A stretch of 64,000 nucleotides of DNA, taken from assembly GCF_000165485.1 (NCBI RefSeq), contig NC_014623.1, forward strand, positions 4,978,893 through 5,042,892. Reading direction: 5' to 3'. The notes below the pieces were generated by a model that was not told the DNA's origin, made no database searches, and saw only the letters and a program-made list of their open reading frames with translations. Made by a program: the position numbers and the translations under genes. Source of the stretch: Stigmatella aurantiaca DW4/3-1. Lineage in GTDB: Bacteria > Myxococcota > Myxococcia > Myxococcales > Myxococcaceae. Shown piece after piece: positions 10,826 through 48,929 of this stretch (position 1 is the first letter of the stretch; every line of letters begins with the position of its first letter).

Positions 10826-10853
10826 AGGGTCCGATCCATGAGGGTCGGACCCT
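10826..10853 (+). terminator. Perfect hairpin after the cold-shock gene
   Basis: AGGGTCCGA (10826-10834) and TCGGACCCT (10845-10853) form a nine-base-pair stem around a ten-base loop, 28 bases after the stop. It is followed by TGTCGCTTT rather than a clean T run. It also covers early in-frame ATG codons of the next gene, which argues against those starts. Confidence 0.6.
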
Positions 10854-10876
10854 TGTCGCTTTCTGGAGTCCCTGCC

Positions 10877-24375: not shown

Positions 24376-24781
24376 ACCTTTTGGGCTCCTGGACTGCGGA
24401 GGGGGGGCAGAGCTGAATGCGTCCCGTGCTCTCCGCTCACCCCACAGGGCTGGCAGGTGCGTGCCTCCTACCCAAGGCGGCCCCGGACGCGCGTCGGCAT
24501 CGCCTCGCGACGCTCATCCCATCAGAGTGGGTTGCGTTGCTGTCTTCACGGCTGTCAATGCAGCCAAGCCAGATCGCCACGCAGTTCAAGAAAACCAAGA
24601 CCAATACACAGGTGAGAATACAGAGCGGTAGATGTGTGCCATTCCGTGAGGAGCGAATCTCAACTGTTAGGTTTTGGCCGTTCTCTGCTGCCGTCTCCAG
24701 GAGTTTGAGAGGCTGATGTACCCTTAGAGCCAAAACCCACCCGGCCTGTTGCTTCCGGGACCACGCCAGCGAGTCCTCCGC
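24376..24781. other. Gene-free stretch at the left border of the accessory region
   Basis: I see no coding sequence here. Open frames lack start signals and have mixed third-position composition, and the middle is less GC-rich than the flanks. The only structure found is a nine-base inverted pair, GGTTTTGGC (24670-24678) and GCCAAAACC (24729-24737). No transposase remnant is recognisable. Confidence 0.5.
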
Positions 24782-26818: not shown

Positions 26819-26863
26819 CTTCCAATCCCTGATTCCAGGGATTGCTGATGCCAGGAGGCCGTG

Positions 26864-28873: not shown

Positions 28874-29920
28874 ATGCCATCAATTGCAATGCCAGTGGCC
28901 TCCGCAGGTCTACAAACCTCAGCGGATGCCGTGAGGCTCCTCAAGCCCTTCTGCGTGCCACCGTTTTACTCCCAAGAAAGCTACTCGGACATTCTGAAGA
29001 CTGCCGAGACGTTGCCCTCCATTCTCTCGCTGAGCCACATGTTCGAGCGCCCCTTGGGGGTGCCCGAGCATCCGGTGGATTTCTCCGTCTGGATCTTGGC
29101 GAAGGGCCGCCGCGATGTGCTGGCGGGGATTCACGAAGGCCTTCCCTCGGCCTTCTATGCCCAGGAGCCCTGGAGGCGGATCCGCGACTTTGCCAGAAGC
29201 TGGGTAGATGAGACGTCTCCCCTGCACGATGTCAGCTCGGTCTGGTTGGAGTTTGACATTCGCCACCGGCCCAGTGGTATTCCGACGCCGCTGTTATTCT
29301 TTACCATCGGACCCCACCTCTCGCCGCAGCCCGGCCTGGAGTTGCTCCAGCCCAAACCCTTTGTCTCACCAGAGTTCGCGTCCTTGCGCCGCTGCTGGGA
29401 ACTCATCCCCGCCTCCTGCCGATACCGCACGCTGGGCATCTTTTACTCGCGGCATACCGAGGCCATTCGCCTCATCATCATCACGAATCCGGATGAGGCG
29501 TTTGCCTACCTGGAGAAGGTTGGCTGGCCCGGCTCCCCCGCGAAGCTGAGAAAGCGGGTGGAGAAGTTTTTGCATTTCCATTCCGAGATCGCGCTGCACA
29601 TCGATGTCCACCCCCAGGGCGTGCAGCCACAGGTGGGGATGGAGATCTACGTGGACGAGAATTCCTTGTACCGGGGGCGGGGAGGGGATTGCAGGCCCTT
29701 GCTCGACCTGGCCGTCGAGGAGTCGCTGTGCTTGCCGGAAATCCGTGATGCGCTCACGGCGTGGCCTGGCACGGGCACCGAGAGCCTTGCAGATGGGCGG
29801 GTGGTGCGGGTGGAGCGCATGTTCCACCATGTGAAGCTGGTGAGCCAGCTGGACCTGACCCTGCAGGCCAAGGCTTATACAACCGCCGAATACGAGGAGA
29901 GTTCACCATGGGACAGGTAA
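28874..29920 (+). CDS. Unrecognised RiPP-locus protein, family A copy 1
   Basis: 348 residues from ATG 28874, preceded by GGGGAGGGG. I do not recognise the family. It is paralogous to the protein at 34911-36020: both share WLEFD, LH(I/L)DV, PQ(V/I)G(M/I)E and QAKAY in the same order. The alternating beta-strand pattern and the C-terminal QAKAY recall barrel-type peptide prenyltransferases, and a prenyl diphosphate synthase lies in the locus, but this link is speculative. It has no signal peptide or membrane helix. The stop overlaps the next gene (2OG oxygenase) by 13 bases, so the two are translationally coupled. Confidence 0.7.
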   Translation: MPSIAMPVASAGLQTSADAVRLLKPFCVPPFYSQESYSDILKTAETLPSILSLSHMFERPLGVPEHPVDFSVWILAKGRRDVLAGIHEGLPSAFYAQEPWRRIRDFARSWVDETSPLHDVSSVWLEFDIRHRPSGIPTPLLFFTIGPHLSPQPGLELLQPKPFVSPEFASLRRCWELIPASCRYRTLGIFYSRHTEAIRLIIITNPDEAFAYLEKVGWPGSPAKLRKRVEKFLHFHSEIALHIDVHPQGVQPQVGMEIYVDENSLYRGRGGDCRPLLDLAVEESLCLPEIRDALTAWPGTGTESLADGRVVRVERMFHHVKLVSQLDLTLQAKAYTTAEYEESSPWDR

Positions 29921-30759
29921 CGCAGGCAGAATGGTTCAAGTTCCGCTCCGTGGATTACTCCCAGCTCGGCACCCTGGAACATTGCCTCGATGAGTTCACA
30001 CGACGCACCCTCGATGGGGTGGTGATCCGGCAAGTGTATTCCCCGGAATACATGCAAGAAATCAGCTCTCGAATCGAGCGGCACGAGCCTCCTTTCTACA
30101 TCTTTCCGAACATGGCCACTGCCGCCGAGGCCCGCAAAAACAAGCACTTGTACGGGATTACCCTCGTGGCCGCCGGCCGCGACCTGAACGAGTACTTCCG
30201 CGTGGCGGCGGGCTTCCGCTCCCATTGTCACGAGCTCTTCCAGGACGGCGCCGATTACGAAGAGCGCATGAGGCAGATCTTCTCGGTGCTCGGCGGGGGC
30301 CGCGCCGTGGTGCTCCCTCGCAATCCTGACGGGCAGGACTACATGCCCGCGACCGTCCGGATTCTTCCCGCGGGGGCTGCCATCGACTTGCACTGCGACA
30401 ACAACCTCAGTCACCACCCCACCTACGCGCACCTGAAGACGGTCTGCGATGTGGGCAACCAGCTCAGTTTCTTCCTGACGCTCAACGCACCAGGGGGTGG
30501 GGGCGAGCTGGTCGTCTACGAGCGGCGTTGGTCGGATCGCGACGATGTGGGCAACGAGTATGTGGTGAGCAAGGACGCGTCGATGGTTGAGGACTCTGAG
30601 TGGATCGCCCTCAAGCCCCAGCCCGGTGATTTGATCCTCTTCGCCGGAGGGCGCATCTACCACCGCGTCGCCCCGACCGAGGGGAACCGTCCTCGCTATA
30701 CGCTGGGAGGATTCCTGGCGAATGCCCACGAGGGCAAGTCGCTCTACTACTGGAGCTGA
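29908..30759 (+). CDS. Fe(II)/2-oxoglutarate-dependent oxygenase
   Basis: 283 residues from ATG 29908 (GAGGAG upstream, 13-base overlap with family A copy 1). The facial triad is H162-x-D164 in IDLHCDNNL and His252 in IYHRVAPTEGN, with Arg in PRYTLGGF as the 2-oxoglutarate anchor. The jelly roll is complete (SFFLTLNAPGGGGELVVYER). It probably hydroxylates the precursor core or a tailoring intermediate; Thr, Trp and Asn in the core are candidates. Confidence 0.85.
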   Translation: MGQVTQAEWFKFRSVDYSQLGTLEHCLDEFTRRTLDGVVIRQVYSPEYMQEISSRIERHEPPFYIFPNMATAAEARKNKHLYGITLVAAGRDLNEYFRVAAGFRSHCHELFQDGADYEERMRQIFSVLGGGRAVVLPRNPDGQDYMPATVRILPAGAAIDLHCDNNLSHHPTYAHLKTVCDVGNQLSFFLTLNAPGGGGELVVYERRWSDRDDVGNEYVVSKDASMVEDSEWIALKPQPGDLILFAGGRIYHRVAPTEGNRPRYTLGGFLANAHEGKSLYYWS

Positions 30760-30836
30760 GCGAGGCCGCTTCCAGGGCGGCCCTCTGGTTCCCATGGGGG
30801 AGGGGGGAGCGGCGCTGGGGCGCGCGAGGAGAGAAT

Positions 30837-31724
30837 ATGTCTACTCGTTCCGTGGCAAGGCCGTCCCTTCATCCATCGTTCATCCTGATTGGCCCGCCGA
30901 AAAGCGGCAGCACCTCCTTATGGTACAGCCTGTCCGCGCACCCAGGCGTTGCGGTGCGCGAGCATATTCATTGCAAGGAGCCGTCATTCTTCTGGCGCGA
31001 TGACCTCTATGCCCGGGGCATCGCGTTCTATCTGCGCAATTTCCCGGAGGACGATGGGTCGGGCCGCGTCACCTTTGAGTGCACGCAGAACTACTTCTCC
31101 TCGCCAGATGCCTGCCGCAGAATTCACGAGGCCTACCCGGACATGAAGCTCATCGTGGTTCTGCGTGAGCCGGTGGCACGTGCGTACTCGCTCTATACCC
31201 ATTTGCACATGGACGCGCTCATCCTGCGCAAGCTGCGTCAGGACCCAGGGGAGGGCGAGCGGATTCTGGCGCGCCACCCGGAGCTCTTGGATGGAGGCTA
31301 TCTGCCGGACCCGAAGGACGAGCGTTATCACGGCGAGCCGGCGTCCTTCGAAGAGCTCGTAGAGGAATATTTGAGCGGCCGCTGCTCGCGGCACTGGGCG
31401 CTCGATTACCTGGGCATGAGCGAGTACATCCGGCACATCGAGCGGTGGACATCCTTCTTCAACCGACAGCAGATGCTCTTTGTCTGTGCCGAGGAACTCT
31501 TTAGCCACTATCAGGCGGTGCTGCGTCCAATCCAGGAATTCGCAGGACTCCCCCCCAGCGTGCTGCCCTATCGCCGCGACAATCAAGGCGAGCTGCGGGC
31601 GATGGCCGCTGGCGTGCCGTACGTGCCTCCGAAAGACAGTCTGGTCAAAAAACTGCGGGAGCACTTTGCACCCTTGAACCGCGAGCTGTTTGCGTTTCTC
31701 GGCCGCACTTACCCATGGGGCTGA
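30837..31724 (+). CDS. PAPS-dependent sulfotransferase
   Basis: 295 residues. The 5'-phosphosulfate loop is PPKSGSTSL (about residues 20-28) and the 3'-phosphate motif is REPVARAYSLY. It has the size and layout of the heparan-sulfate/NDST-like bacterial sulfotransferases. GGAG precedes ATG 30837. The acceptor is unknown: the core peptide has no Tyr, so a hydroxyl made by one of the oxygenases, or an isoprenoid hydroxyl, would be a natural target. Confidence 0.87.
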   Translation: MSTRSVARPSLHPSFILIGPPKSGSTSLWYSLSAHPGVAVREHIHCKEPSFFWRDDLYARGIAFYLRNFPEDDGSGRVTFECTQNYFSSPDACRRIHEAYPDMKLIVVLREPVARAYSLYTHLHMDALILRKLRQDPGEGERILARHPELLDGGYLPDPKDERYHGEPASFEELVEEYLSGRCSRHWALDYLGMSEYIRHIERWTSFFNRQQMLFVCAEELFSHYQAVLRPIQEFAGLPPSVLPYRRDNQGELRAMAAGVPYVPPKDSLVKKLREHFAPLNRELFAFLGRTYPWG

Positions 31725-31928
31725 GCAGGATTTCCCTCATCTTCTCCAGTCACTTTGTTCGTTGGTAGGCATTTCATGCTGCTGGCACGTCAGTGCGATT
31801 GACTGACATATTAATGAACAATGCACCTGCGGGATGGGGAACCGATGAGAGGATGAGAGGTTTTGCTAGCAGTATGAAAGAGAAATGTGTATGGTCCGCA
31901 GGCTGCTCTAGTCTGATGGGGGAGGGAC

Positions 31929-34499
31929 ATGACGAGCTCGAACTCGAGTGGCAGCACAACCTGGAGTAACTGGGCGGATACCATCGAGTTCAAGCCGGAG
32001 TATTTTTTTCAGCCCACGACCTTTGATGATTTGCTCTCAGCGGTCTCGCATGCCGCCCAGGGAAAACTGCCCATCCGTGCCGTAGGCAGTGGGCATTCAT
32101 GGAGCCTGGGCGCCGTGCCAGGGGCCCAGGCCTACCAACCCGGAGAGCAGGTCAAAGGCGTCTTGATCGATCTGGGCAACATGAAGCCCGAGAACTGTCG
32201 GGCTGATCCGTATCTGAAAGCCTTCTACTTCAAGGACGCCAACGACACGATTTACGTCGCCGCGCCCCCAGGCACTCCCCAAGGTTGGTTGGCGGACAAT
32301 GCTGCCAATGGCAATGACCGCCAGCACGAATACAGCTCCGAGCACCCGGATGCAGCCCTCTCCTCCATGGGCCCGGCTCCGGACATCACCCTGGGGGGAT
32401 TCATCGCCAACGGTTGTCATGGCACGGGGTGGGTGCATCCTCCTGTGTCCGACCTCGTCGTCGCCATCGAGGTGCTGACGATTGACGCGACGGGCAGGGT
32501 GGTGCCTCGGTCCTTCACCGTGAGCGCCGAGCTGGCGCAGGTGCTGACGCAGAATGGCATTTTCAAATCCACCCCCGAGGTTTCGCCCGACGTCATGAGG
32601 GCGTTGCGCGTCAGCCTCGGCGCGCTGGGGGTGATTAGCCGGTTCGTCCTCCAGCTGGAGCCGCTGTTCCATGTGGGCGTGCTCGATGAGGTCGCGGACG
32701 TGGAGGAGATCTTCCCTGCCGATGGCGATCCCTCCGCGCTGGCGACGCTGGTCACCTCGAGCGACTATGTCGAGATTTTCTGGTTTCCATACAACAAGCA
32801 GCTGTGGATCAAGCGCTTCCAGCGGTTGAAGGACACGCCCCCGCGGTACGTGTCGAAGGTCGTCGGCTTCAACACGATCGTCAGTATTCTCACCGAGCTG
32901 ACCGATGGGTTGTTGGGGGATCTTTTCGAGCTGGCCCCGAAGGTCACGCCGGTCACGTTGCAGGTGTTCTTCGAGAGCTTGAAGTTGCTCATGCAGGGGC
33001 GGAAGCTGGGGGCCCTGCCGTTCGACGAGGACTTCACGCCGCAGGATCCGGTTGTCCCAGTGCACAAGGCGTATCTCTACCAGACCCGGTATTTCAACAA
33101 CATCGTCGATCTGGAGTACACGGTCCCCATCCCTTCGGTGGGAAAGGGAGGCCATGACTTTTCGCAGGTCATGACCGCGTGGACGCAGGCCAAGGCCCAG
33201 ATTGATGCGATGCAAGCCGCCGGGGAATTCCCCATCAACCTCAGCGTCCACTTCCGGTTCATCAACAACTCGAACAGCCTGCTGTCTCCGGCCAACTCAG
33301 GGGACTCCACCACCCATACCTGCTACATCGAGTACATCAGCTTCTCGCAACAGCTCAGTGGCTATACGCGTTACTCGGAGGCGGTCGCGCCAAAGTGGGC
33401 AGCGCTGGGCGGATTGCCGAACTGGGCGAAAATCTTCCAGATTGTCCCGAACAGCTACGCCGACTCCCAGCAGAAACTCAAGGCGCTCGGCTCCCTGCAA
33501 CCATTCCTCCATCATCGCAAAGCGTTGGATCCCTCTGGCCACTTCATCAACAACTTCCTTCAGCAACTGTTAGGGCTGACGCCCATGCAGCCCCGGGCTG
33601 CCCCCCGCGTTGCTGCCTCGAAAGCAGGTGTCAAGGTGAAAGCCCCGCCCGTGGCGGTCCAGCGCTTTCAACTGGCACCCGCGGATGAGGGGCGTGTATT
33701 GAGGGCTCTCCCCACGGCGGACAGGTGGGCGAAGAGTGCGCGGGGCTGCACCCTCGCGCACGATCCGCAGCAGCAAACCGCTGTGTTGGTGGATGAGCAA
33801 CGCCATGGTCACTTCTTCTCCTACGAACTGACGGAGGGGGCTGGTTTGACGTACACCTTGTTGACTGGCTCGAAGATGTTGTCTCCCCGGGAGGTTTTCG
33901 AGCGGGTGGCCGAGGTGTTGCGAGAGAGCCAGATCGTGACCGGGATTACCTTCGCGCCGGGGGGCCGATCACGTCCATTGGAAGTCCTTCACCAGAAAGG
34001 TTGGGTAGCGACTGATATGGAAGAGACGGCAATGCAGAGTGCTCGGGAGGCCCGCGCCCATGAGATCGTCAAGAAGCACTCCCTCTGGGCGCTGGGGGCG
34101 GGAGGGATTCCTGTCCCAGGATTGGATATCGCGGCGTTCATCCTCGTCCAACTGCGGATGATACGCGAGCTGGCCGGACACTATGGGATGACCTTCAACG
34201 AGCAAGCCGCGAAAGGCATCCTCTCGTCGTTGCTCGGCGGAGCTTCCGCCGCGTACCTGGGACGCCCGGTGCTGTTCAGCTTGCTGAAGAGTGTCCCGAT
34301 CGTCGGGGCGACGGCAGGCGTGGTGTCTGGCGCCGTGTCGATGACGGCGCTCTCTCGCGCTTTGGGGAACCTCTTCATCCAGCATTTCGAGACAGGGGGA
34401 ACCCTGCTTACCTTCGATGCGAAGGCCTTGCGTTCCCACTTCATGAATGAGTTCCAGAAGAACTCCGCACCCACTTCCACGCAAGCTCCGCTTGCGTGA
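31929..34499 (+). CDS. VAO-type FAD-linked oxidase fused to DUF697-like C-terminal domain
   Basis: 856 residues from ATG 31929 (GGGGGAGG upstream). Residues 20-220 form the FAD-binding domain of the aldonolactone/alditol-oxidase group: RAVGSGHSWS, with His56 the expected covalent flavin site, and TLGGFIANGCHGTG. The ALO-type cap and the closing KALDPSGHFINNF motif end near residue 545. After a linker region of unknown kind, residues about 710-850 hold a hydrophobic DUF697/YcjF-like domain (HSLWALGAGGIPVPGLDIAA, VPIVGATAGVVSGAVSM). I know of no such fusion. The last domain could tether the oxidase to the membrane. Confidence 0.8.
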   Translation: MTSSNSSGSTTWSNWADTIEFKPEYFFQPTTFDDLLSAVSHAAQGKLPIRAVGSGHSWSLGAVPGAQAYQPGEQVKGVLIDLGNMKPENCRADPYLKAFYFKDANDTIYVAAPPGTPQGWLADNAANGNDRQHEYSSEHPDAALSSMGPAPDITLGGFIANGCHGTGWVHPPVSDLVVAIEVLTIDATGRVVPRSFTVSAELAQVLTQNGIFKSTPEVSPDVMRALRVSLGALGVISRFVLQLEPLFHVGVLDEVADVEEIFPADGDPSALATLVTSSDYVEIFWFPYNKQLWIKRFQRLKDTPPRYVSKVVGFNTIVSILTELTDGLLGDLFELAPKVTPVTLQVFFESLKLLMQGRKLGALPFDEDFTPQDPVVPVHKAYLYQTRYFNNIVDLEYTVPIPSVGKGGHDFSQVMTAWTQAKAQIDAMQAAGEFPINLSVHFRFINNSNSLLSPANSGDSTTHTCYIEYISFSQQLSGYTRYSEAVAPKWAALGGLPNWAKIFQIVPNSYADSQQKLKALGSLQPFLHHRKALDPSGHFINNFLQQLLGLTPMQPRAAPRVAASKAGVKVKAPPVAVQRFQLAPADEGRVLRALPTADRWAKSARGCTLAHDPQQQTAVLVDEQRHGHFFSYELTEGAGLTYTLLTGSKMLSPREVFERVAEVLRESQIVTGITFAPGGRSRPLEVLHQKGWVATDMEETAMQSAREARAHEIVKKHSLWALGAGGIPVPGLDIAAFILVQLRMIRELAGHYGMTFNEQAAKGILSSLLGGASAAYLGRPVLFSLLKSVPIVGATAGVVSGAVSMTALSRALGNLFIQHFETGGTLLTFDAKALRSHFMNEFQKNSAPTSTQAPLA

Positions 34500-34680
34500 T
34501 GGCGGAGACGGGGGCGGATAGCTCGAGGTCGTTGAGTGATTCCGCCTGAAAGTTTGTGCCTGGCAGAACACCCCTTGGCCAATGCTTGTGATTCAGGCGC
34601 CGTCTCGCTCTCACGGGATGGCTTGCCGCGAAGCATCAACTGAGTCCTTGCCGGGCACTAGCGGCGCAGCACCCGTAGTG

Positions 34681-34694
34681 TGTTGTGTACAACA
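34681..34694. promoter_or_regulatory. Palindrome just upstream of the precursor gene
   Basis: TGTTGT and ACAACA arms are separated by GT, 21 bases before the precursor ATG and six before its Shine-Dalgarno site. It could be an operator or part of the mRNA leader; the site is short and chance is possible. Confidence 0.3.
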
Positions 34695-34715
34695 GAAACA
34701 GGAGGAAGCACTCAG

Positions 34716-34841
34716 ATGGATAATAACCAGACGCAGCCGACCGAGCAGGACACTCAGAACACCGAGCAGGAGCTGACCGACGAGCAGCTCCTGCAGATGG
34801 CCGAAGGTTCCTGTACCTGGGGCGCCAACTGCGGCAAGTAG
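34716..34841 (+). CDS. Lanthipeptide precursor peptide
   Basis: 41 residues, with AGGAGG ten bases before ATG 34716. The leader is Gln/Glu/Asp-rich and ends ELTDEQLLQMAEG, a helix typical of class II lanthipeptide leaders. The core is SCTWGANCGK: one Ser, one Thr and two Cys for (methyl)lanthionine formation, plus Trp and Asn. A Thr34-Cys39 ring is sterically easy; Ser32 sits next to Cys33, so Cys33 may remain free or be modified otherwise. The exact leader cleavage point is unknown; it may be after Gly31 or Glu30. It stands between the flavin oxidase and family A copy 2, 6.5 kb upstream of lanM. Confidence 0.85.
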   Translation: MDNNQTQPTEQDTQNTEQELTDEQLLQMAEGSCTWGANCGK

Positions 34842-34910
34842 CCGCAGGCGTGCCATTCAACCTTAAACACGAGAGGTAGGACGGCAACATCATGCAGGAC
34901 ATGACCCCGG

Positions 34911-36020
34911 GTGGATTGCCTGGGGGCTTGCCGCAGCACGGGCTCCTGCGAGTTGAAGTCCTTCACCGGCGACATGGAAATCAAGTTAGATACATCCTTG
35001 GAACGGGTGGAGTCTCTGCTCCCCCCGCTGCTCATGCCGCCGGTGAGTTTCTCTCGTATCAAGAGAGCCGCGCGGCTGCTGCCGCGGTCTGCGGCGGATT
35101 TTCTGGGGTTCGAGTGCCGCTTGGCCGAGGGGGATTCGCACACGGACTGTGCCCTCAACCTGACGGCGGACGGAGCCCGTTACCTGGCGGGGCGCCACGG
35201 CACGCCGCTGCCGGATGAACTGCGAACGGAGAGCTGGCAGCGCGTCCAGCGCTTCTACCAGGAGTGGGGCGATACCCGGGATCCCGCCTATGTGGACGCA
35301 GGCGCGACCTGGTTGGAGTTCGACACGGCCGCGGAGGAGCTCAGGCCCAATCTCTTGTTTGGGTATTGGCCCGGTAAGAAGGAGATCCGGCGGCCTCTGC
35401 CCTGGTTGGTGGAGTCCATCATCCCCATGCTGTTGGGCACGCCCATCTCGCAGGCATTCCAGAGCCACTTGCTGCGCTGCTTCGAGGCGTGTCCGCCCGG
35501 AACCGATGACTTCCAGATTGGGCTGATGATCGCCCGCCGCATTCAAGCCGTGCGGTTGTGCGTGTTCGACATTCGCCCGGACGCCGCACCGGCCTATCTC
35601 GAGAGGTTGGGCTGGAAAGGGCCCTTGGACGAGGTTCGCCGCACCCTGGAAGCGCTCGCACCGCACGCGGACTTCATGGGGCTGCACCTGGACGTGGGCG
35701 AGCAGCTCTACCCCCAGATTGGGATCGAGCCGGGCTTCATCGCGGGGCCCTGGGCTCGCCAGCCTCACCTGGAGCCGCGCTGGCATCGCCAGTTCGAGCA
35801 GCTCGTGAACCTGGGCTTGTGCATGCCCACCAAACGCGACGCCTTGATGGGCTGGATCGGTCATCAGCGCTACCCGAGAGACTCAAGGGATGAGGGGCTC
35901 GTGCTGCTGCGTGGGCTGAGCCATTTGAAGGTCATCTTGCGGGCGGGCACCCCTCCGCAGGCGAAGGCCTACTTTGGAATCGCCCACCGGCCGCTGAAGG
36001 CCGCGGCTGGGGCGGCTTGA
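34911..36020 (+). CDS. Unrecognised RiPP-locus protein, family A copy 2
   Basis: 369 residues from GTG 34911, or 348 from ATG 34974 (MEIKLDTSLERVESL). I prefer GTG because codons between the two starts have a GC third base in 18 of 20 cases and AGGA lies upstream, whereas ATG 34974 has no ribosome site. A well-placed ATG at 34892 is one frame out, so a one-base indel in the CCCCGGG run (34905-34911) is possible. It shares WLEFD, LHLDV, PQIGIE and QAKAYFG with copy 1. The function is unknown; placement right after the precursor argues for a direct role in maturation. Confidence 0.65.
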   Translation: MDCLGACRSTGSCELKSFTGDMEIKLDTSLERVESLLPPLLMPPVSFSRIKRAARLLPRSAADFLGFECRLAEGDSHTDCALNLTADGARYLAGRHGTPLPDELRTESWQRVQRFYQEWGDTRDPAYVDAGATWLEFDTAAEELRPNLLFGYWPGKKEIRRPLPWLVESIIPMLLGTPISQAFQSHLLRCFEACPPGTDDFQIGLMIARRIQAVRLCVFDIRPDAAPAYLERLGWKGPLDEVRRTLEALAPHADFMGLHLDVGEQLYPQIGIEPGFIAGPWARQPHLEPRWHRQFEQLVNLGLCMPTKRDALMGWIGHQRYPRDSRDEGLVLLRGLSHLKVILRAGTPPQAKAYFGIAHRPLKAAAGAA

Positions 36021-36023
36021 GCC

Positions 36024-37103
36024 ATGGCCGCTCCGGACCAGACCTCTGCGGAGGCAGCCATCGCCGCGGCGCTGGGCTTTCTGTTGAAGGCTCAGGATGA
36101 GCGAGGTGCGTGGAAGGACTTCATGCTCCCGGCCACGCAGAGCGACGTCTGGGTCAGCGGCTTCGTGGGAGAGGTGCTCGCCAGTCTGGGTGAACCCGCG
36201 GCGCGGTGGGCCGCGGAGGCTGCCTGGCGGTATCTCGAGGGCGTGGTGGCCCCAGGGGGCGGCTGGAGCTACAACACCCTGGTCCCAGGCGATGGCGACA
36301 GCACGCTCTGGGGTCTCAGGCTGGCGGAGGCGCTGGGGGCCGGAGGCTCCGCCCGAGCCCTGGCCGCGAGGGACTTCCTGGAGCGGCACCTGCAAGAGGA
36401 CGGCGGCATGGCGACTTATGCGTCGGCCGGGCCCGTGCGGGATTACATCGGCTTGCCGCCGGAGGTCTCCTTCCAAGGATGGACGCACTCCCATGTGTGC
36501 GTGAGCGCCGCGGGAGCCAACCTCTCCGCTTACCGCGAGCGGCTGGGCACGTACCTGCTGCGGACCCAGGATGAGCAGGGGCACTGGCCCGCTTACTGGT
36601 GGTTCGATGAGGAGTACGCCACTGCGGAGGCCGTGGCGGCCTTGGCGGGGGCGGGGGAGGCCGTGGCTTCCGCGTCCGAGCGGGCTTTCCGGCTCGAACG
36701 GGCTGCGGAGTGGGCACTGGGGCGCGTGGAGCGCCACCTGGAGTTCGTGGGCTCCCGGCCGCCGTCGTTCGCCCTGGCACAGGCGCTGCGCGTGGTGGCT
36801 CGCGCCGAGCCTTCGCCGCAGCGGCGGGAGGCCATCGGCCGGGGCGTGTCCCAGCTGTGCGCCTGGCAGAAACCTCAGGGCTCCTGGTCTCCGTCCGCCC
36901 GTCTGCGGGTGCCGCGTCCGGACGTGGTGGTGCCAGAGCCCAAGGCGCCGTGGACGCTCTGGAGAGGCCTGCCGCCCGGGGTTTCCTCGGTGGAAGACCT
37001 CTTGCAGCACACCTTCACCAACTACTCCCTGGATCATTACGCCGTGTACACGACAGGGACCGTGCTCCGCGCCTTGCATGAGGTGCGTGGGTTCCTCGGA
37101 TGA
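36024..37103 (+). CDS. Squalene-cyclase/prenyltransferase-repeat alpha-barrel protein
   Basis: 359 residues, about half of a full squalene-hopene cyclase, consistent with one alpha/alpha barrel. QW-like repeats are visible (KAQDERGAWKD, RTQDEQGHWPAYWW, AWQKPQGSWSPS). DGDSTLWGLRL at about residue 92 aligns with the DxDDTA-R segment of class II terpene cyclases, keeping the first and the middle (general-acid) Asp but with Ser in place of the last. It may cyclise or bind a prenyl chain supplied by the polyprenyl synthase of the locus. It starts four bases after family A copy 2. Confidence 0.75.
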   Translation: MAAPDQTSAEAAIAAALGFLLKAQDERGAWKDFMLPATQSDVWVSGFVGEVLASLGEPAARWAAEAAWRYLEGVVAPGGGWSYNTLVPGDGDSTLWGLRLAEALGAGGSARALAARDFLERHLQEDGGMATYASAGPVRDYIGLPPEVSFQGWTHSHVCVSAAGANLSAYRERLGTYLLRTQDEQGHWPAYWWFDEEYATAEAVAALAGAGEAVASASERAFRLERAAEWALGRVERHLEFVGSRPPSFALAQALRVVARAEPSPQRREAIGRGVSQLCAWQKPQGSWSPSARLRVPRPDVVVPEPKAPWTLWRGLPPGVSSVEDLLQHTFTNYSLDHYAVYTTGTVLRALHEVRGFLG

Positions 37104-37122
37104 CGCCAGACAAGAGGGAACC

Positions 37123-37932
37123 ATGACTGGACTGCCGAAACTCGATGCCAAGCAGCTCCAAGCGGAGGCGGAGGCGGAGGCGTTGCGCGCCGCGGGCCAC
37201 GTCCTGCTCCGGGGCGTTTTTTCTCCCGAGGAGATCGCCGCCTACCGCCCCGCGCTGCGGGACTACATTTTGGACAAGCGGGAGCAGCTCACCACGGCGG
37301 AGCGCAATCTGGGCGCCAGCCCGGAGAACACCACCTTCAGCCTGGGGGATGCTCCCTCCGCCGTGGCCGACTTCGTGACGTCGCCGCGGCTGGGGGAAGT
37401 TGCTGCCCGGTTGCTCGGCGTGGAGGCTGTGCGGATCCTCCACTTCTGCGGCTTCTTCAAGCCCGGTGGTGGCCCGCCCACGCCCTGGCACCAGGACCTG
37501 AGCTTCATCCCGTTGGACAGCGATCGGGCGCTCTCTGCCTGGATCCCGCTGATGGATGTCTCGCCAGCCATGGGTGGCCTGGTTTTCGCCGAGGGCTCTC
37601 ATCAGCAGGGCCATCAAGAGCCCGCGGCCGCGGCCCGCTTTCGCCTGGCGCGAAACGGGGCGATGAAGGCCGGGGACTTGTCGCTGCACATGGGGTGGAC
37701 CCTGCATGCCGCTGGGAAGAACGCGAGCACGGTGATGCGGGAGGCGATCGCCGTGTGCTTCTACGCGGACGGAGCGCGGGTGGCCAGTGAGGAGGGATTG
37801 CCGTTCCGCCGCAGCTTGATGACGTCCTACTTCGCCGGGCTTCGCCCGGGAGATGTGGCCGCAGGGCCCCTGAACCCCGTCGTCTTCCGGCGAAGCGGCC
37901 CGCCGGCTGGCACGGAAGGAGCGCATCCGTGA
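37123..37932 (+). CDS. Phytanoyl-CoA-dioxygenase-family oxygenase, copy 1
   Basis: 269 residues from ATG 37123 (GAGGG upstream). The iron triad is H123-x-D125 in PWHQDLSFIP and His195 in WTLHAAGKN; Arg for 2-oxoglutarate lies a few residues on. The domain is complete. Its stop overlaps the second PhyH gene by four bases (GTGA), and the two proteins share FSPEEIAAYRP/LSPEEIEAYRP and the TPWHQD region, so they are tandem paralogues. Confidence 0.87.
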   Translation: MTGLPKLDAKQLQAEAEAEALRAAGHVLLRGVFSPEEIAAYRPALRDYILDKREQLTTAERNLGASPENTTFSLGDAPSAVADFVTSPRLGEVAARLLGVEAVRILHFCGFFKPGGGPPTPWHQDLSFIPLDSDRALSAWIPLMDVSPAMGGLVFAEGSHQQGHQEPAAAARFRLARNGAMKAGDLSLHMGWTLHAAGKNASTVMREAIAVCFYADGARVASEEGLPFRRSLMTSYFAGLRPGDVAAGPLNPVVFRRSGPPAGTEGAHP

Positions 37933-38861: not shown

Positions 38862-38891
38862 TCTCGAGCACGACGGAAGGAATCCAACCCC

Positions 38892-40160: not shown

Positions 40161-40163
40161 GGC

Positions 40164-44300: not shown

Positions 44301-44497
44301 AGGCGCTCGAAGAGCTGGCGCTTCGTCAGGCCTCCGTGGTGGTGAGGGAGGCCCGGGCCGGGAGCTACCGGTTCTCCGGGGCCGAGCGGGGCGGCTTCTT
44401 CGATCCGTCTTTTTTCCAGGGACTCTCGGGCATCGGCTTCCAGTTGCTGAGGCTCGCCTTCCCGGGGCGGCTTCCCTCAGTACTCGTGTGGGAATGA
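41312..44497 (+). CDS. Class II lanthionine synthetase LanM (CCG type)
   Basis: 1061 residues, full length. The N-terminal kinase-like dehydratase has FYKPRGLGIEDAWYRLL and the DxE of VLIDTETLMH; the usual TDxHxEN motif is present as SDCFFENIIA with His replaced by Phe. The C-terminal LanC-like cyclase starts near 700 (MDLYDGLGGIALFYAALE). Its zinc ligands are Cys932 in WCHGAPG and Cys977-Cys978 in LCCGQAGR; having Cys where most enzymes have His (CHG) places it with the ProcM-type CCG cyclases, known for relaxed reactivity. It dehydrates Ser/Thr of the core and adds Cys thiols. Confidence 0.93.
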   Translation: MSEELLAEEEAVRQLAARASTLWERLAGDFVPEEGPESARLASERLGKWRDKAAGGDAQLFQKRLDWLGTSPQQVQALLGEVRLKGALPAWTQTFRRAMAARRTAGQGRHPSTFPFSELLIPFAEAAKGLLIPECRAVFTPEAFDSLVEDLIHELSYVAAPSLLAEFTGFRSRQGGGAEPTSRRLYEAFTAQQLDEGLWRFFSGYPVLARLLSRTTEQWAFNVCELARAVKADQRELQRVFAGGAPQGRIASIQPSLSDRHHGGRTVARVTFEGGVQLFYKPRGLGIEDAWYRLLEDLNARGGDFHLLRVLHRGDRGWVEPAFHASCTQVQEAKQFYVRAGMLLGILYVLEASDCFFENIIAAGAFPVLIDTETLMHHVPQRSQDGVSAEELAQDIVFNSVFRSGFLPSWDVGPRGERVDISGLGATAGQVTAYLRRQWRHVNTDAMALEHVPIRVETEDHLPHLGGASLRAFDHAGEIIEGFSMMYRLLRKHREELARPESPLVRLSTQEIRFIFHASRIYGLLLKRLGAPNHMKAGVERSIETDILSRFYVESREKSRYWPLLQAELEAIEQLDIPCFRARADSHALTLPTGKVLPEAFKESGSERVWRKLASLDEADLELQVRFIHAALGMVSSSQEQAPAARLRREAASWEGGPLPREEFAAEASSIAAVLQERAIFAPDGGATWIAPQLLPHAGHHQLRPLRMDLYDGLGGIALFYAALEHVSGQGRRMALAALSSLRRFVVTGPPRRVAQEGYTLGAATGVGSFLYVLCRSSALLGEPALLEDATRAAGLITPEGIEADAQFDVMSGVAGALLGLLALHQATGAVEALEKAKLCGEHLLKHQLPCEPAGAAWRTKKGWPLAGFAHGAAGITLALLRLHAVVGDARLRQAAVQALAFEDAVFVPSEGNWPDFRHAREGTPSFMNAWCHGAPGMGLARISGLAFLDSVGIRRDIEAAVSSVKRQGLGDKDGLCCGQAGRIEFLLAAARANEDKALEELALRQASVVVREARAGSYRFSGAERGGFFDPSFFQGLSGIGFQLLRLAFPGRLPSVLVWE

Positions 44498-44508
44498 GGG
44501 AGAGGGCG

Positions 44509-45963
44509 ATGGAGCGGACTGGCACACCAGAGCAGCTCGCCTCCTTCCTGGAGCGCACGCGGGGCTCGGAGCCTGGCGGTGGCGAGGTCCTCGACCAGGC
44601 CCGCGAGCTGTTGGAGCAGGCTTATGTTCACCTGCCCGACAACCAGGCCTCGGGATTGGATCCGCTGAGCTTGCTGGCAGCGCTTCAGCGCACGCCGTCC
44701 CTGGATCGGGTCCAGCTGTACCGGGAGTTGCTCGCGATCTTCGCGCGGCTGGGAGATCGCCACACCCATTGCAGCCTGCCCGAGCCTTTCGCGAGCCAGA
44801 TTGCGTTCCTGCCCTTCTTGGTAGGGGAGTTCCACGAGCGAGGCGAGCGGCAGCTCGCGGTGCTCCACTCCGCCATGGGTGTGCTGGAGCGTGGGGATGT
44901 CCTCCTCTCCTGGAATGGCGCCGCCATGGCGGAAGTGATCGGACGCCAACTGGAGTGGCAGCACGGTGCCAATCCCGAGGCCCGGCACGCCAAGGCGGTG
45001 CAAACGCTGACCTTCCGTCCCCTGGCGCTGATGCCACCTCCCGAGGAGGAATCGGTCGTCCTGGAGTGTGTGTCCGCCACGGGACGGAGGCGGACGGTGC
45101 GGGTGGACTGGCGCGTGACGGATGCCGCGTGGCTCTCGCGGCACTTCTCTTCCTTCCAGCAGGGAGCCTCCATGGCTGAGCTGGGGCAGGAGGGAGGTAT
45201 CTCCTCGCGCCGGGTGAACACCTCGAAGGGGGCGTTTGGGTACATCCGGGTGAACTCATTCCTGGGCCGTCCCGAGCCCTTCTTGGAGCACTTCTCCCGA
45301 GCGCTGGAGGACATGCCCCGCCAAGGGGTGATCCTGGACATGCGGAGCTGCGAGGACGGGATCGTGCAGATTGGGGAGCGGCTGCTCCAGCTCTTCACCC
45401 CGCGGAGGATCCAGCCCGAGCCCTTTCAGTTTCGGGTCACGGCGCTGACCTTGGATCTCGTCCGCTCGGTGCCAGCCCTCGCTGGCTGGCGAGAGGCCGT
45501 CGAGCGCGCGGCGGCCCAGGGCCGGACCTACTCGGAGGCGCTGCCGCTGACGCCCGAGGGAGAGGCCAATGGGATTGGCCAGAAGTACGCAGGTGCCGTC
45601 GTGCTCCTCACGAGCGCACTGACCTACAGCACGGCCGAGATGTTTGCCGCGGGGTTTCAGGATCACGGCATCGGGCAGGTGGTGGGGTCCGCCGCTCGTA
45701 CGGGAGGCGGGGGTGCTTCTCCTTGGCCACAGAGCATGCTCTTCAAGCTCAGCGGCAGGGCCGCCTTTCGCCCTTTGCCCGGTGGCCCCTTGTTTCGCGT
45801 CGCCGTCCGAAGGTGTCAGCGCGTGCATGCGCAGGCGGGAACGCCTCTCGAGCGCGAGGGGGTCGTCCCCGATGTGCTCCACCTGCCAACGCGGGCGGAT
45901 CTCTTCGAGCAGGACAGGGACCTCTTGGAAGTGGCGGGCCAGGTGCTGTCACGGATGCAGTAG
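44509..45963 (+). CDS. S41-family serine peptidase
   Basis: 484 residues from ATG 44509 (GGGAG six bases upstream); ATG 44494, overlapping the lanM stop as ATGA, is the alternative. The C-terminal tail-specific-protease core is present, with VILDMRSCEDG and the nucleophile Ser374 in LTYSTAEMFAAGF. A Lys partner is not obvious. No signal peptide is visible. No other leader peptidase or C39 transporter is encoded in the locus, so this is a candidate for removing the leader; that is inference. Confidence 0.8.
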   Translation: MERTGTPEQLASFLERTRGSEPGGGEVLDQARELLEQAYVHLPDNQASGLDPLSLLAALQRTPSLDRVQLYRELLAIFARLGDRHTHCSLPEPFASQIAFLPFLVGEFHERGERQLAVLHSAMGVLERGDVLLSWNGAAMAEVIGRQLEWQHGANPEARHAKAVQTLTFRPLALMPPPEEESVVLECVSATGRRRTVRVDWRVTDAAWLSRHFSSFQQGASMAELGQEGGISSRRVNTSKGAFGYIRVNSFLGRPEPFLEHFSRALEDMPRQGVILDMRSCEDGIVQIGERLLQLFTPRRIQPEPFQFRVTALTLDLVRSVPALAGWREAVERAAAQGRTYSEALPLTPEGEANGIGQKYAGAVVLLTSALTYSTAEMFAAGFQDHGIGQVVGSAARTGGGGASPWPQSMLFKLSGRAAFRPLPGGPLFRVAVRRCQRVHAQAGTPLEREGVVPDVLHLPTRADLFEQDRDLLEVAGQVLSRMQ

Positions 45964-46006
45964 CCGGAACAACGGAATTTCAGACGGGTGCATGAAGGGG
46001 GTCGCG

Positions 46007-46945
46007 ATGTCCGCAGCGAACTTGTCAGCCAGAGCCCATGAGGCGACGTCCAGCATCGACTTCCGGCGGCGGCTGCATGAGCGGCAACAGCTCGTGGCAC
46101 GGGCGCTGGACGAGCACTTCCCCCCGGGAGCGGGGCACCTGACGGCGGCGATCCGGGAAGCGTTGCTCGCGGACGGCAAGCGGCTCAGGCCCATTCTCTG
46201 CCTGGAGGCCTGCGAGTGGGTGGGAGGGAGCGTCAAGGCGGCGCTGCCCGCCGCCTGCGCGCTCGAGATGATCCACAAGATGACGCTGGTGCACGATGAC
46301 CTACCGGCCATGGATGATGCGGAGACGCGCAACGGCCGGCCGGCACTGCACAAGGTGCATGGCGAGGCGCTGGCCATCCTCGCCGGGGATGCGCTGCTGG
46401 TGCATGCGTTCGGGCTGCTGGCATCCACCCGAGGCGTTCCCGCGGAACGGGTGACCGTTGCGATCAGGCGTTTGTGCCAAGCGCTGGGCACCACCGGTCT
46501 GGCCGGAGGACAAGCCCTGGATGTGCTCTCTCAGACGGAGGGAGTGACGCCCGAGAAGCTCGATCACGTTCACACCTGGAAGACCGCGAGCTTCTTCGAG
46601 GTGGCCATCGTTATTGGCGCGGAGATGGGGGGCGCGGACGCATCCCAGGTCGAGGCGCTGGCCCGCTACGGGATGCTGCTCGGCAGGGCGTTCCAGATCT
46701 CCGATGACCTTCTGGACGCCCGGGACGAAAAGGGGAAGGTCGAAGGAGAGGTGACGAACTACGTCCAGCTCCACGGGGTGGAAGGCGCCCGGCGCAAGCT
46801 GCGCGAACTGCTGAACCAGGCGGTCTCGTCGATCGCCTCGGTGAAGGGGGGAGACATCCAGCTGCTGGCTGGAATCACGGAACTCGTCTGGGAGCGTTCC
46901 TGGAACGCGGAAGAAGAGGAGGGTCACCATGGCAATGACGCTTGA
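46007..46945 (+). CDS. Polyprenyl (farnesyl/geranylgeranyl) diphosphate synthase
   Basis: 312 residues from ATG 46007 (AAGGGGG five bases upstream). The first Asp-rich motif is DDLPAMDD (97-104), the second DDLLD; GKRLRPILCLEA and KTASFFEVAI are also diagnostic. Residue -5 from the first motif is Met, not the Tyr of farnesyl synthases, so a C20 product is possible. Such an enzyme in a lanthipeptide locus implies that an isoprenoid is attached or made. It overlaps the next gene by 17 bases. Confidence 0.9.
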   Translation: MSAANLSARAHEATSSIDFRRRLHERQQLVARALDEHFPPGAGHLTAAIREALLADGKRLRPILCLEACEWVGGSVKAALPAACALEMIHKMTLVHDDLPAMDDAETRNGRPALHKVHGEALAILAGDALLVHAFGLLASTRGVPAERVTVAIRRLCQALGTTGLAGGQALDVLSQTEGVTPEKLDHVHTWKTASFFEVAIVIGAEMGGADASQVEALARYGMLLGRAFQISDDLLDARDEKGKVEGEVTNYVQLHGVEGARRKLRELLNQAVSSIASVKGGDIQLLAGITELVWERSWNAEEEEGHHGNDA

Positions 46946-48929
46946 AGCCGTTCCGGCTCAGTACGACGTTTGCCTGTTGTCGATGCCTTTTCCCGTGCTG
47001 AACCAGCCCTCCATGGCGCTGGGGTTGCTGAAGCCCGCGCTGACGCAAGCCGGGTTGTCGGTGAAGACGCTTTACCCGTGCCTGTGGTTCGCAGAGGAGG
47101 TGGGACTGGATGCCTACGTCGCCATCTGTGACAGCAAGCAGGAGTTCCTCGTGGGGGAGTGGATCTTCGCCGAGGCCGCTTTCCCCGGCTTCCAACCGGA
47201 TCTGGACACCTATCTGGAGCGCGTGCTGTCCGCGCCGGTGTCCCGAGGGCTGTTGAAGAAGAGCCGCTTCAGCGGCGATCCCCACGCGGCCCTGCGAGCG
47301 GCGCGCCAGGCCGCCAAGGGCTTCATCGAGCGGGTGGCGGCCCGCGTCCTGGAACTCCAGCCCCGCATCGTCGGGTGCACCTCCACGTTCACCCAGCACT
47401 GTGCCTCATTGGCGGTCCTCCGGAAGATCCGCGAACTGGCGCCGGAGGTCGTCACCGTCATGGGAGGGGCCAACTGCGAGGGAGAGATGGGCGTGAGCGC
47501 GCGGCGCAACTTCCCCTGGGTGGACTTCGTGGTTTCGGGGGAGGGGGAGCTGCTCTTTCCCAAGCTCTGCCAGAGCATCCTGGAGCATGGGCGGGACATT
47601 CCTGCGCAGCAGTTGCCCCATGGTCTCATCGGGGAAGCGCAATTGCGCCTGCCCGCGGGGGCCCCGGCTCCCAGGGCCTCGGTCACCCGCATGGACACCA
47701 CGCCCGTGCCAGATTTCGATGACTACTTCGAGGAGATCCTGTCCTCGCCGCTGAGGCCCTTCATCTTCCCGGGGCTCGCCATGGAGACCTCACGGGGGTG
47801 CTGGTGGGGCAAGAAGCACCACTGCACGTTCTGCGGGCTGAACGGCGGCAACATGGACTTCCGTTCCAAGAGCGCCGACCGCGTCATCTCGGAGTTGTCC
47901 GAGCTGTCCACGAAGTATGGCATCCGAAAGTTCAACATCGTGGACAACATCATGGACCTTGCCTACATCCAGGATCTGGCGCCACGCATCACGTCGGATA
48001 CGCCCTACACGCTCTTCTTCGAGACGAAGGTCAACCTGAAGCGTGCTCAGCTGGAGCGGATCGCCGCCGCCGGGATCCGGCGCCTCCAGCCCGGCGTCGA
48101 GAGCATGCACGACGAGATCCTCCGGCTGGTGGATAAGGGAACCACGGCACTGCAGAACATCCAGCTCCTCAAGTGGGCGCGCGAGATTGGGATCTTCATT
48201 ACCTGGAACTTCTTGTGGGATGTGCCCGGGGAGCAGGACGCGTGGTACGGCGAGATGGCCGCATGGCTGCCCTGGGTGACCCACCTCCAGCCGCCAGGGG
48301 TGGATCGCATCCAGTTCCACCGCTTCAGCCCCTACCACCAGCGGCCCGCCAGCTTCGGTCTCACGCTTGAGCCGTACCCCCTCTATTCGCACGTCTACCC
48401 GCTCACCCCGGAGGAGCTGGGTGGACTGGCCTACTACTTCCATGACCCCCGCCGACGGTCCGCCAAGGAGGAGCTGGAGCGGCGGCCGCACCTGAGGCAG
48501 ACGATGCGGGAGATCGCTCAGTGGAACAAGCTGTGGAACCGAGGGGGGTTCGAAGGCACCTGGGAAAAGCCCGTACTGCGGATGTTCGATGAAGGCGAGC
48601 GCCTGCGCCTGATGGACACGCGGCCCTGCGCCCCTGCGAGCGAGCAGATCCTCACGGGACTCGCGAAGCAGGTCTACCAGCAGTGTGACGCGATTCAGAC
48701 CTTGAAGAGCTTGCTCGAAGGCCTGGCAAAGCACGGCGTCGAGGGAGCCTCGCCAGGGGACGTCCAGGCCATCCTGGACGACCTGGTGAAGCGCAAGCTG
48801 CTGCTGCGGCAGGGCGAGCGGTTCATCGCCCTGGCCTTGCGCGAGATATCCCGGATCCCCGACTCGGATGAGGACTTCCCCGGTGGCTACACGGATGTGG
48901 ATGCCTGGCGCCAGGCCCTGACGCTTTAG
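46929..48929 (+). CDS. Cobalamin-type radical SAM RiPP maturase (rSAM_ocin_1-like)
   Basis: 666 residues from ATG 46929 (GGAGGG upstream). The N-terminal 230 residues resemble a B12-binding Rossmann domain (VVTVMGGANCEGEMG, VDFVVSGEGELLFP). The 4Fe-4S motif is C291-x7-C299-x2-C302 in RGCWWGKKHHCTFCGLNGG, the spacing that marks the RiPP maturation radical SAM family (C-methyltransferases). The radical SAM barrel and a C-terminal helical region follow. It may methylate an unactivated carbon of the core. It is the last gene of the locus, 15 bases from a convergent permease. Confidence 0.9.
   Translation: MAMTLEAVPAQYDVCLLSMPFPVLNQPSMALGLLKPALTQAGLSVKTLYPCLWFAEEVGLDAYVAICDSKQEFLVGEWIFAEAAFPGFQPDLDTYLERVLSAPVSRGLLKKSRFSGDPHAALRAARQAAKGFIERVAARVLELQPRIVGCTSTFTQHCASLAVLRKIRELAPEVVTVMGGANCEGEMGVSARRNFPWVDFVVSGEGELLFPKLCQSILEHGRDIPAQQLPHGLIGEAQLRLPAGAPAPRASVTRMDTTPVPDFDDYFEEILSSPLRPFIFPGLAMETSRGCWWGKKHHCTFCGLNGGNMDFRSKSADRVISELSELSTKYGIRKFNIVDNIMDLAYIQDLAPRITSDTPYTLFFETKVNLKRAQLERIAAAGIRRLQPGVESMHDEILRLVDKGTTALQNIQLLKWAREIGIFITWNFLWDVPGEQDAWYGEMAAWLPWVTHLQPPGVDRIQFHRFSPYHQRPASFGLTLEPYPLYSHVYPLTPEELGGLAYYFHDPRRRSAKEELERRPHLRQTMREIAQWNKLWNRGGFEGTWEKPVLRMFDEGERLRLMDTRPCAPASEQILTGLAKQVYQQCDAIQTLKSLLEGLAKHGVEGASPGDVQAILDDLVKRKLLLRQGERFIALALREISRIPDSDEDFPGGYTDVDAWRQALTL

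What the first reader, a model, noticed from the sequence alone, without database searches (positions are those of the whole stretch)
28874..48929. Lanthipeptide locus with an isoprenoid module, five iron oxygenases and a B12 radical SAM enzyme
Seen: a 41-residue precursor, a LanM, and within 20 kb of co-directional genes a polyprenyl synthase, a squalene-cyclase-like barrel, two PhyH, two JmjC and one 2OG oxygenase, a radical SAM RiPP maturase, a sulfotransferase and a flavin oxidase. Known: each family is established, and four-base overlaps couple the JmjC pair to LanM. Inferred: the product is a small lanthipeptide that is heavily oxidised, C-methylated and joined to or made alongside a terpenoid. 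I know of no described lanthipeptide of this kind. A fusion of two neighbouring loci (RiPP and terpenoid) is the main alternative.
Basis: partly seen in the sequence, partly recalled or inferred. Interest (0 to 1): 0.93.

Follow-up and report, generated by a model that had tools for sequence, protein, structure and literature searches.

The report
Terpenoid-decorated lanthipeptide gene cluster
A myxobacterium carries a gene set predicted to make a small ring-shaped peptide whose tryptophan is fused to a cyclised terpene and then heavily oxidised, a richer version of a peptide-terpene hybrid type first reported in 2024.

Summary
The gene set is real and is one conserved cluster, not two neighbouring loci. 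The 'squalene-cyclase-like barrel' is a MstE-type terpene cyclase, 3 bp behind the second copy. In Nostocaceae, relatives of these two proteins form one fused chain beside a LanM, the architecture described for NctPC, which puts C20 on a Trp and cyclises it. So both 'modules' most likely act on one substrate, the Trp of SCTWGANCGK. A C-[ST]-W-G-x-x-C precursor, prenyltransferase, cyclase, two PhyH oxygenases and LanM recur together in five genomes of three phyla; their prenyltransferases form one clade (100/100). The rest varies: JmjC pair, S41 and radical SAM in 4 of 5; polyprenyl synthase in 3 of 5; sulfotransferase only here. The '2OG oxygenase' is WelO5 family but keeps an iron-binding Asp, so probably an oxygenase, not a halogenase. 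A new, unusually elaborate variant of a known kind; no chemistry is shown.

The parts
24749..26818 (+). ABC transporter, probable exporter
   Evidence: PF00664+PF00005; 74-75% identical, same place, in both Myxococcus loci; no match in the Sphingomonas or Nostocaceae locus
26861..28489 (+). Beta-lactamase-fold (PF00144) protein, possible peptidase
   Evidence: 83% in both Myxococcus loci and 47% beside the precursors in Sphingomonas
28874..29920 (+). Family A copy 1 (A1): predicted ABBA prenyltransferase
   Evidence: 30% to A2; model pLDDT 89.5; VIA Z 15.9 to CymD
29908..30759 (+). WelO5-family Fe/2OG enzyme with HxD...H
   Evidence: PF22814 E 4.2e-80; PDB WelO5 E about 1e-51; motif alignment
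30837..31724 (+). Sulfotransferase, found only in this locus of the five
   Evidence: PF00685; no match in the other four loci
31929..34499 (+). ALO-type FAD oxidase with C-terminal DUF697 domain
   Evidence: Myxococcus loci hold only residues 689-845; Sphingomonas holds a 21-23% match to residues 2-548
34716..34841 (+). LanA precursor, 41 aa, core SCTWGANCGK
   Evidence: ELTDEQLLQMAEGSC identical in two Myxococcus and two Sphingomonas precursors
34974..36020 (+). Family A copy 2 (A2): predicted ABBA prenyltransferase, proposed Trp prenyltransferase
   Evidence: model pLDDT 86.3; Foldseek IptA E 2.3e-5; VIA Z 17.0 MpnD; fused to MstE-like cyclase in Nostocaceae
36024..37103 (+). MstE-like monodomain terpene cyclase, DGDST acid motif
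   Evidence: PDB 6sbb/6sbg E about 2.5e-55; motif kept in 8 of 8 aligned
37123..37932 (+). PhyH oxygenase 1 (HQD...H)
   Evidence: PF05721
37929..38861 (+). PhyH oxygenase 2 (HQD...H)
   Evidence: PF05721
38892..40160 (+). JmjC_2 oxygenase 1 (HFD...H)
   Evidence: PF08007
40164..41315 (+). JmjC_2 oxygenase 2 (HFD...H)
   Evidence: PF08007
41312..44497 (+). LanM, class II lanthionine synthetase
   Evidence: TIGR03897, DUF4135 + LANC_like; WCHG and CCG motifs
44494..45963 (+). S41-family peptidase, candidate leader peptidase
   Evidence: PF03572; 73-75% in Myxococcus, 44% in Sphingomonas
45992..46945 (+). Trans-prenyl diphosphate synthase homologue (prenyl donor supply, or diverged transferase)
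   Evidence: PF00348; FPP/GGPP synthases in PDB; RNG in place of RRG and a shortened loop
46929..48929 (+). B12-type radical SAM RiPP C-methyltransferase (CX7CX2C)
   Evidence: TIGR03975, PF02310 + PF04055; 83% in Myxococcus, 60% in Sphingomonas

Best explanation
One pathway for a class II lanthipeptide-terpenoid hybrid. LanM dehydrates the core SCTWGANCGK and closes a thioether ring that probably runs from the conserved Ser/Thr before Trp to the second Cys, so that Trp sits inside the ring (inferred). An ABBA prenyltransferase (most likely A2) then transfers a prenyl group, most likely C20, to the Trp indole, and the MstE-like cyclase encoded 3 bp downstream protonates the chain through its DxD[ST]T motif and folds it into a polycycle, as described for the fused protein NctPC. 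The two PhyH enzymes, which travel with this pair into three phyla, most likely oxidise the terpene; the JmjC pair, the WelO5-family enzyme, the radical SAM methyltransferase and here a sulfotransferase and a FAD oxidase decorate peptide and terpene further. S41 and/or the beta-lactamase-fold protein remove the leader and the ABC transporter exports the product. Shown by computation: gene content, fold, homology, conserved synteny and conserved core motif. Inferred: every chemical step, the order and the product.
For: A2 and A1 are predicted with good confidence as five alpha-alpha-beta-beta repeats; all 50 rows shown for A2 by Foldseek are ABBA or cyanobactin prenyltransferases, best IptA E 2.3e-5, VIA Z 17.0 (4.3 A, 297 aligned) for MpnD and 15.9 for CymD with A1. 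Cyclase to MstE E 2.4e-55 with the acid motif kept. Four Nostocaceae proteins are A + MstE-like in one chain (three, a fourth), three of them between a PhyH and a LanM, with precursors containing SWTGC or NWTGC where intact and readable. PMC13290415 (sections 8, 9 read): NctPC, an ABBA P domain plus MstE-like C domain, transfers C20 to Trp and cyclises it. PMC12715784 (whole text): MppC, an ABBA enzyme, geranylates a Trp of a LanM-macrocyclised core. Same-core loci in five genomes and one A2 clade at 100/100. In myxobacterial class II loci, 9 of 9 readable precursors beside family A hold an SC-x(0-2)-W core against 2 of 12 not known to lie beside it.
Against: No biochemical data. TM-scores of the A2 model to ABBA chains are only 0.4-0.5, and neither Pfam, NCBIfam nor a profile search of the PDB links family A to ABBA enzymes by sequence. 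The fused Nostocaceae proteins do not group with the A2 clade. The polyprenyl synthase is absent from the Sphingomonas and Nostocaceae loci and has lost usual motifs, so chain length C20 is unproven; the residue before its first Asp motif does not tell FPP from GGPP synthases. One LanM locus has an SCGWSSC precursor without any family A in 20 kb. Two ABBA copies leave the division of labour open.
Confidence: 0.72

Rival explanations
1. The polyprenyl synthase homologue is not a donor synthase but a trans-IDS-like tryptophan prenyltransferase (as ComQ, the ChrPC P domain and PalQ), and the ABBA proteins prenylate another site or only bind the peptide.
For: It lacks the usual RRG (RNG in 3 of 3 orthologs) and the usual loop after the second Asp motif, whereas the 3 other synthases of this genome that could be compared keep RRG. 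PMC13290415 section 9 describes such Trp transferases. The genome has 4 other polyprenyl synthases.
Against: Both DDxxD motifs are kept and the best PDB matches are FPP and GGPP synthases. It is missing from two of five same-core loci where A2 and the cyclase stay. The characterised fused form pairs an ABBA domain with the MstE-like cyclase.
Confidence: 0.15
2. Two pathways side by side: a lanthipeptide, and a separate small-molecule meroterpenoid or indole terpenoid made by the prenyltransferases, cyclase and oxygenases.
For: ABBA enzymes, MstE and WelO5 are known from small-molecule pathways; in L036-L038 and L132 family A sits near a 28-31% cyclase relative with no LanM detected in 20 kb.
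Against: LanM, precursor, A2, cyclase and both PhyH are interleaved and kept together in five genomes of three phyla, and A + cyclase + LanM also adjoin in the fused Nostocaceae loci.
Confidence: 0.08
3. The product is a prenylated but uncyclised lanthipeptide; the MstE-like protein has another role.
For: Many family A + LanM loci have no cyclase detected by the window protein, and MppC makes a simple geranylated peptide (PMC12715784).
Against: The cyclase keeps D-x-D-[ST]-[ST] in 8 of 8 aligned members and follows A2 directly in all five same-core loci.
Confidence: 0.05

Closest known systems
NctPC-type peptide-terpenoid hybrids (Hubrich et al. 2024, Chem 10:3224; not held, seen only as cited in PMC12715784 and described in PMC13290415)
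   Same: ABBA-fold prenyltransferase plus MstE-like cyclase; Trp target; relatives of both window proteins occur fused in one chain beside PhyH and LanM in Nostocaceae
   Different: Here prenyltransferase and cyclase are separate genes, the A2 clade is distinct from the fused ones examined, and the cluster adds a second ABBA enzyme, a WelO5-family enzyme, a JmjC pair, a radical SAM C-methyltransferase, a synthase homologue, an oxidase and a sulfotransferase. I had no NctPC sequence, so identity of the families is inferred from architecture
MppC / mpp cluster of Moorena producens (PMC12715784, whole text)
   Same: Class II lanthipeptide with an ABBA Trp prenyltransferase acting on a macrocyclised short core
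   Different: C10 and no cyclase described; long Nif11-like leader; no oxygenase set described
MstE (PDB 6sbb, 6sbg), monodomain terpene cyclase
   Same: Sequence homology over 340 residues, E 2.4e-55, DxD[ST]T motif
   Different: MstE acts on a small meroterpenoid precursor (recalled); here the substrate would be a prenylated peptide
WelO5 (PDB 5iqu, 5j4r and others)
   Same: PF22814, about 250 residues aligned, E about 1e-51
   Different: Window protein has H-C-D where the aligned chain 8aut_A has H-V-G, so no open chloride site is expected

Membership tests
Class II lanthipeptide cluster | LanM with DUF4135 dehydratase and LanC-like cyclase domains and zinc-ligand motifs | tested here: met
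Class II lanthipeptide cluster | Short precursor with leader and Ser/Thr/Cys core beside LanM | tested here: met
   the leader itself matches no NCBIfam model
Class II lanthipeptide cluster | Thioether rings in the product | not testable with these tools
   needs expression and mass spectrometry
ABBA prenyltransferase (family A, both copies) | Barrel of five alpha-alpha-beta-beta repeats, matching solved ABBA enzymes | tested here: met
   A2; A1
ABBA prenyltransferase (family A, both copies) | Sequence match to a known prenyltransferase family | tested here: inconclusive
   none in Pfam, NCBIfam or a PDB profile search; the group is known for low sequence similarity (PMC13290415 section 8)
NctPC-type prenyltransferase-cyclase | ABBA P domain with MstE-like C domain | tested here: met
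   as two adjacent genes
NctPC-type prenyltransferase-cyclase | P and C fused in one chain | tested here: not met
   separate ORFs, 36020 and 36024; hence filed as a variant, not a member
NctPC-type prenyltransferase-cyclase | C20 transfer to peptide Trp, then cyclisation | not testable with these tools
   needs reconstitution
MstE-like terpene cyclase | Homology to MstE and the protonating DxD[ST]T motif | tested here: met
WelO5-type halogenase | Membership of PF22814 | tested here: met
   269.7 bits, cut-off 27
WelO5-type halogenase | Gly/Ala in place of the iron-binding Asp/Glu | tested here: not met
   HCD in window and both Myxococcus, HCE in Nostocaceae G658
RiPP radical SAM C-methyltransferase (TIGR03975) | Score over curated cut-off | tested here: met
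   815.3 against 281.85 bits
Trans-prenyl diphosphate synthase | Two DDxxD motifs | tested here: met
Trans-prenyl diphosphate synthase | RRG after the first Asp motif and the usual loop after the second | tested here: not met
   RNG and a shortened loop in 3 of 3 orthologs; so called only a homologue

The most novel reading that the evidence does not exclude
A three-phylum lineage of ribosomal peptide-terpenoid hybrids in which one indole inside a C-[ST]-W-G-x-x-C thioether ring is prenylated, polycyclised and then rebuilt oxidatively, with two ABBA enzymes (and perhaps the diverged synthase) acting as successive transferases on the same short core and the WelO5-family enzyme doing hapalindole-like oxidation of a prenylated indole on a peptide.
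Probability: 0.2. Interest if true: 0.85.

Novelty: new variant of a known kind. Interest (0 to 1): 0.6.

Why it matters
If right, this gives a genetically complete, closed-genome example of a lanthipeptide-terpenoid hybrid with unbundled prenyltransferase and cyclase, and a tailoring set (WelO5-family, JmjC pair, PhyH pair, radical SAM C-methylation, sulfation) that I did not find described together on a RiPP. The core motif C-[ST]-W-G-x-x-C with a split prenyltransferase and cyclase is a direct handle for mining and for testing how leader-guided enzymes build polycyclic terpenes on peptides. It also gives a likely function to an unannotated protein family found in 27 of 145 genomes of the window's order and 39 of 217 Nostocaceae genomes.

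Tried and rejected
Rejected: (1) 'Fusion of two loci': contradicted by shared gene content and order in four other genomes. (2) WelO5-type chlorination: the iron-binding Asp/Glu is present. (3) Using the synthase to fix chain length: the top FPP- and GGPP-named PDB chains carry the same residue, Met, five before the first Asp motif. (4) Trp cores as an exclusive mark of family A: not exclusive, see L136/L164.

Core pattern searches: 4 of 397 Sphingomonadaceae genomes matched, only S. trueperi really; 5 of 195 Myxococcota matched, really only the window genome, G095 and G100; the rest are frames with no precursor. The cyclase was sought in 13 genomes or records with family A: found in 2, S. trueperi and one weak match.

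Rows dropped: of 30 loci read, 9 gave no usable precursor and are left out of the 9-of-9 against 2-of-12 count. Family A nearness was judged from coordinates and seen in the same fetched stretch for 5 of 9. L144, one of the two exceptions, lies on a contig that ends soon after the ABC gene, so its neighbourhood is cut. Fisher p 2.2e-4 ignores kinship of the genomes. In one search one of the four other synthases (L089) was not read by the script. In one search the Myxococcus G095 JmjC and LanM rows were not included.

Literature: PMC12715784 whole text; PMC13290415 passages and sections 8 and 9; PMC10959286 passages (a Hyalangium genome paper that lists two lanthipeptide clusters without detail). 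Hubrich et al. 2024 is not held; what I say of it beyond the two citing papers is recalled. That this enzyme set is not in print rests on searches of open-licence papers only; one search listed 12 of 791.


Full report
WHAT IS THERE. From 24749 to 48929, 17 genes on one strand form the cluster: ABC transporter, beta-lactamase-fold protein, A1, WelO5-family enzyme, sulfotransferase, FAD oxidase with DUF697, precursor, A2, MstE-like cyclase, PhyH1, PhyH2, JmjC1, JmjC2, LanM, S41, synthase homologue, radical SAM.

FAMILY A IS A PREDICTED PRENYLTRANSFERASE. A1 and A2 are 30% identical and match no Pfam or NCBIfam model and nothing in a PDB profile search. With alignments of window proteins and relatives, both fold with good confidence (pLDDT 86.3 and 89.5) into five alpha-alpha-beta-beta repeats. 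For A2, Foldseek finds IptA at E 2.3e-5 and all 50 rows shown are ABBA or cyanobactin prenyltransferases, though TM-scores stay below about 0.5; VIA-align gives Z 17.0, 4.3 A over 297 residues, to MpnD, and 130 of 1000 chains at Z 8 or more. A1 gives Z 15.9 to CymD. A shared fold does not prove function, but the context does point to it.

THE CYCLASE. P0007 matches MstE in the PDB at E 2.4e-55. The acid motif is gDGDST here; a D-x-D-[ST]-[ST] motif is kept in 8 of 8 aligned relatives. It starts 3 bp behind A2.

FUSED FORMS TIE THE TWO TOGETHER. Of 217 Nostocaceae genomes 39 have family A. Of the 30 loci read, three are single proteins of 707-737 aa made of A plus a 34-39% cyclase domain; a fourth, in G717, was seen when larger stretches were read. 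Three of the four lie between a PhyH (about 50% to window PhyH2) and a LanM; the fourth contig ends soon after the fusion. Their precursors in L125 and L126 hold SWTGC or NWTGC behind long NHLP-like leaders. This is the architecture told of NctPC: ABBA P domain, MstE-like C domain, C20 on Trp, then cyclisation (PMC13290415 section 8). MppC, an ABBA enzyme of a class II lanthipeptide cluster, geranylates Trp on the LanM-macrocyclised core (PMC12715784, whole text).

FIVE SAME-CORE LOCI. Window, Myxococcus G100, Myxococcus dinghuensis (G095 = L048), Sphingomonas trueperi (G145 = L064) and a Nostocaceae genome (G658) share precursor, A2, cyclase, PhyH1, PhyH2 and LanM. Cores: SCTWGANCGK (window and both Myxococcus), SCSWGANCNKGC and SCSWGANCRG (Sphingomonas), GCTWGVSCQSSSN with a quite different leader (G658). 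The 15 residues ELTDEQLLQMAEGSC are identical in the five precursors of the first four genomes. A2 of these five form one clade at 100/100. Presence of the rest (stretches of about 32 kb each in Myxococcus, 39.5 kb in Sphingomonas, 35 kb in G658): JmjC1, JmjC2, S41, radical SAM and beta-lactamase-fold protein 4 of 5 (not G658); WelO5-family 4 of 5 (not Sphingomonas); ABC and synthase 3 of 5; A1 3 of 5, plus a remote A-like protein (21%) in G658 whose place in the tree is unsure; sulfotransferase 1 of 5; FAD-oxidase part 2 of 5 (window and, at 21-23%, Sphingomonas), while the Myxococcus loci have only the DUF697 part.

TRP AS THE TARGET. Family A also sits beside other LanMs. In the window's order, 9 of 9 readable precursors close to family A have SC-x(0-2)-W cores (SCCWESC, SCCWSSC, SCGWDSC, SCDWCSC, SCVCWSGC), against 2 of 12 with related leaders and no known family A neighbour. 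Of the two exceptions one lies on a short contig, the other (L164) truly has LanM and SCGWSSC without family A. The set is small and related, so this is support, not proof. In Pseudanabaena, family A is fused to a 2OG oxygenase and sits near LanM; the precursor there ends in Trp.

IRON ENZYMES. All five in the window keep H-x-D...H; so do the aligned relatives, with H-x-E in the G658 WelO5-like protein. The WelO5-family enzyme has HCD where the aligned chain 8aut_A has HVG; that Gly is the halogenase mark is recalled. An oxygenase is the likelier reading.

SYNTHASE. Closest PDB chains are named FPP and GGPP synthases. Both DDxxD motifs are kept, but RRG is RNG and the loop behind the second motif is short in 3 of 3 orthologs, unlike three other synthases of this genome. 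The genome has four more PF00348 genes. It may feed the pathway, or have turned into a transferase; C20 is therefore taken from the NctPC precedent, not from this protein.

MECHANISM. LanM ring closure, ABBA transfer to Trp, cyclisation, oxidation, methylation, leader removal, export. Only gene content, homology, predicted fold, synteny and core conservation are shown; all chemistry and its order are inferred.

NOVELTY. The broad kind is known, so this is a new variant: split prenyltransferase and cyclase, short-leader precursor, and a much larger tailoring set. I found no description of it in the searches listed under Tried and rejected, which cover open-licence papers only.

Noticed in passing
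L035, L041, L042, L043, L045, L050: Family A beside LanM with mersacidin-like leaders and SC-W cores in several myxobacteria: probably simple prenylated lanthipeptides without the cyclase.
   Followed up: partly
L012, L013, L019, L020: Family A at the C-terminus of 699-790 aa open frames with a helical-looking N-terminal part that the window cyclase does not match; no LanM match in the two larger stretches read (L039, L040).
   Followed up: partly
L091 (Pseudanabaena galeata plasmid) 9920-11713: Family A fused to a 2OG-Fe(II) oxygenase, near LanM and Nif11-type precursors.
   Followed up: partly
L052 1288-6147 (Thermoplasmatales archaeon MAG): Family A beside a B12-type radical SAM relative (24%) in an archaeal contig.
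   Followed up: no
L164 6128-9430: LanM with an SCGWSSC precursor but no family A in 20 kb.
   Followed up: partly
L128 5180-6481: ORF between PhyH2 and the WelO5-like gene that looks like an RRXRR/HNH-type mobile protein (name recalled), perhaps an insertion in the G658 cluster.
   Followed up: no
L065 10001-11011 and 19593-20603: Two family A genes in an alphaproteobacterial MAG near NHLP-like precursors ending in WCCCGQ and CCCW.
   Followed up: no
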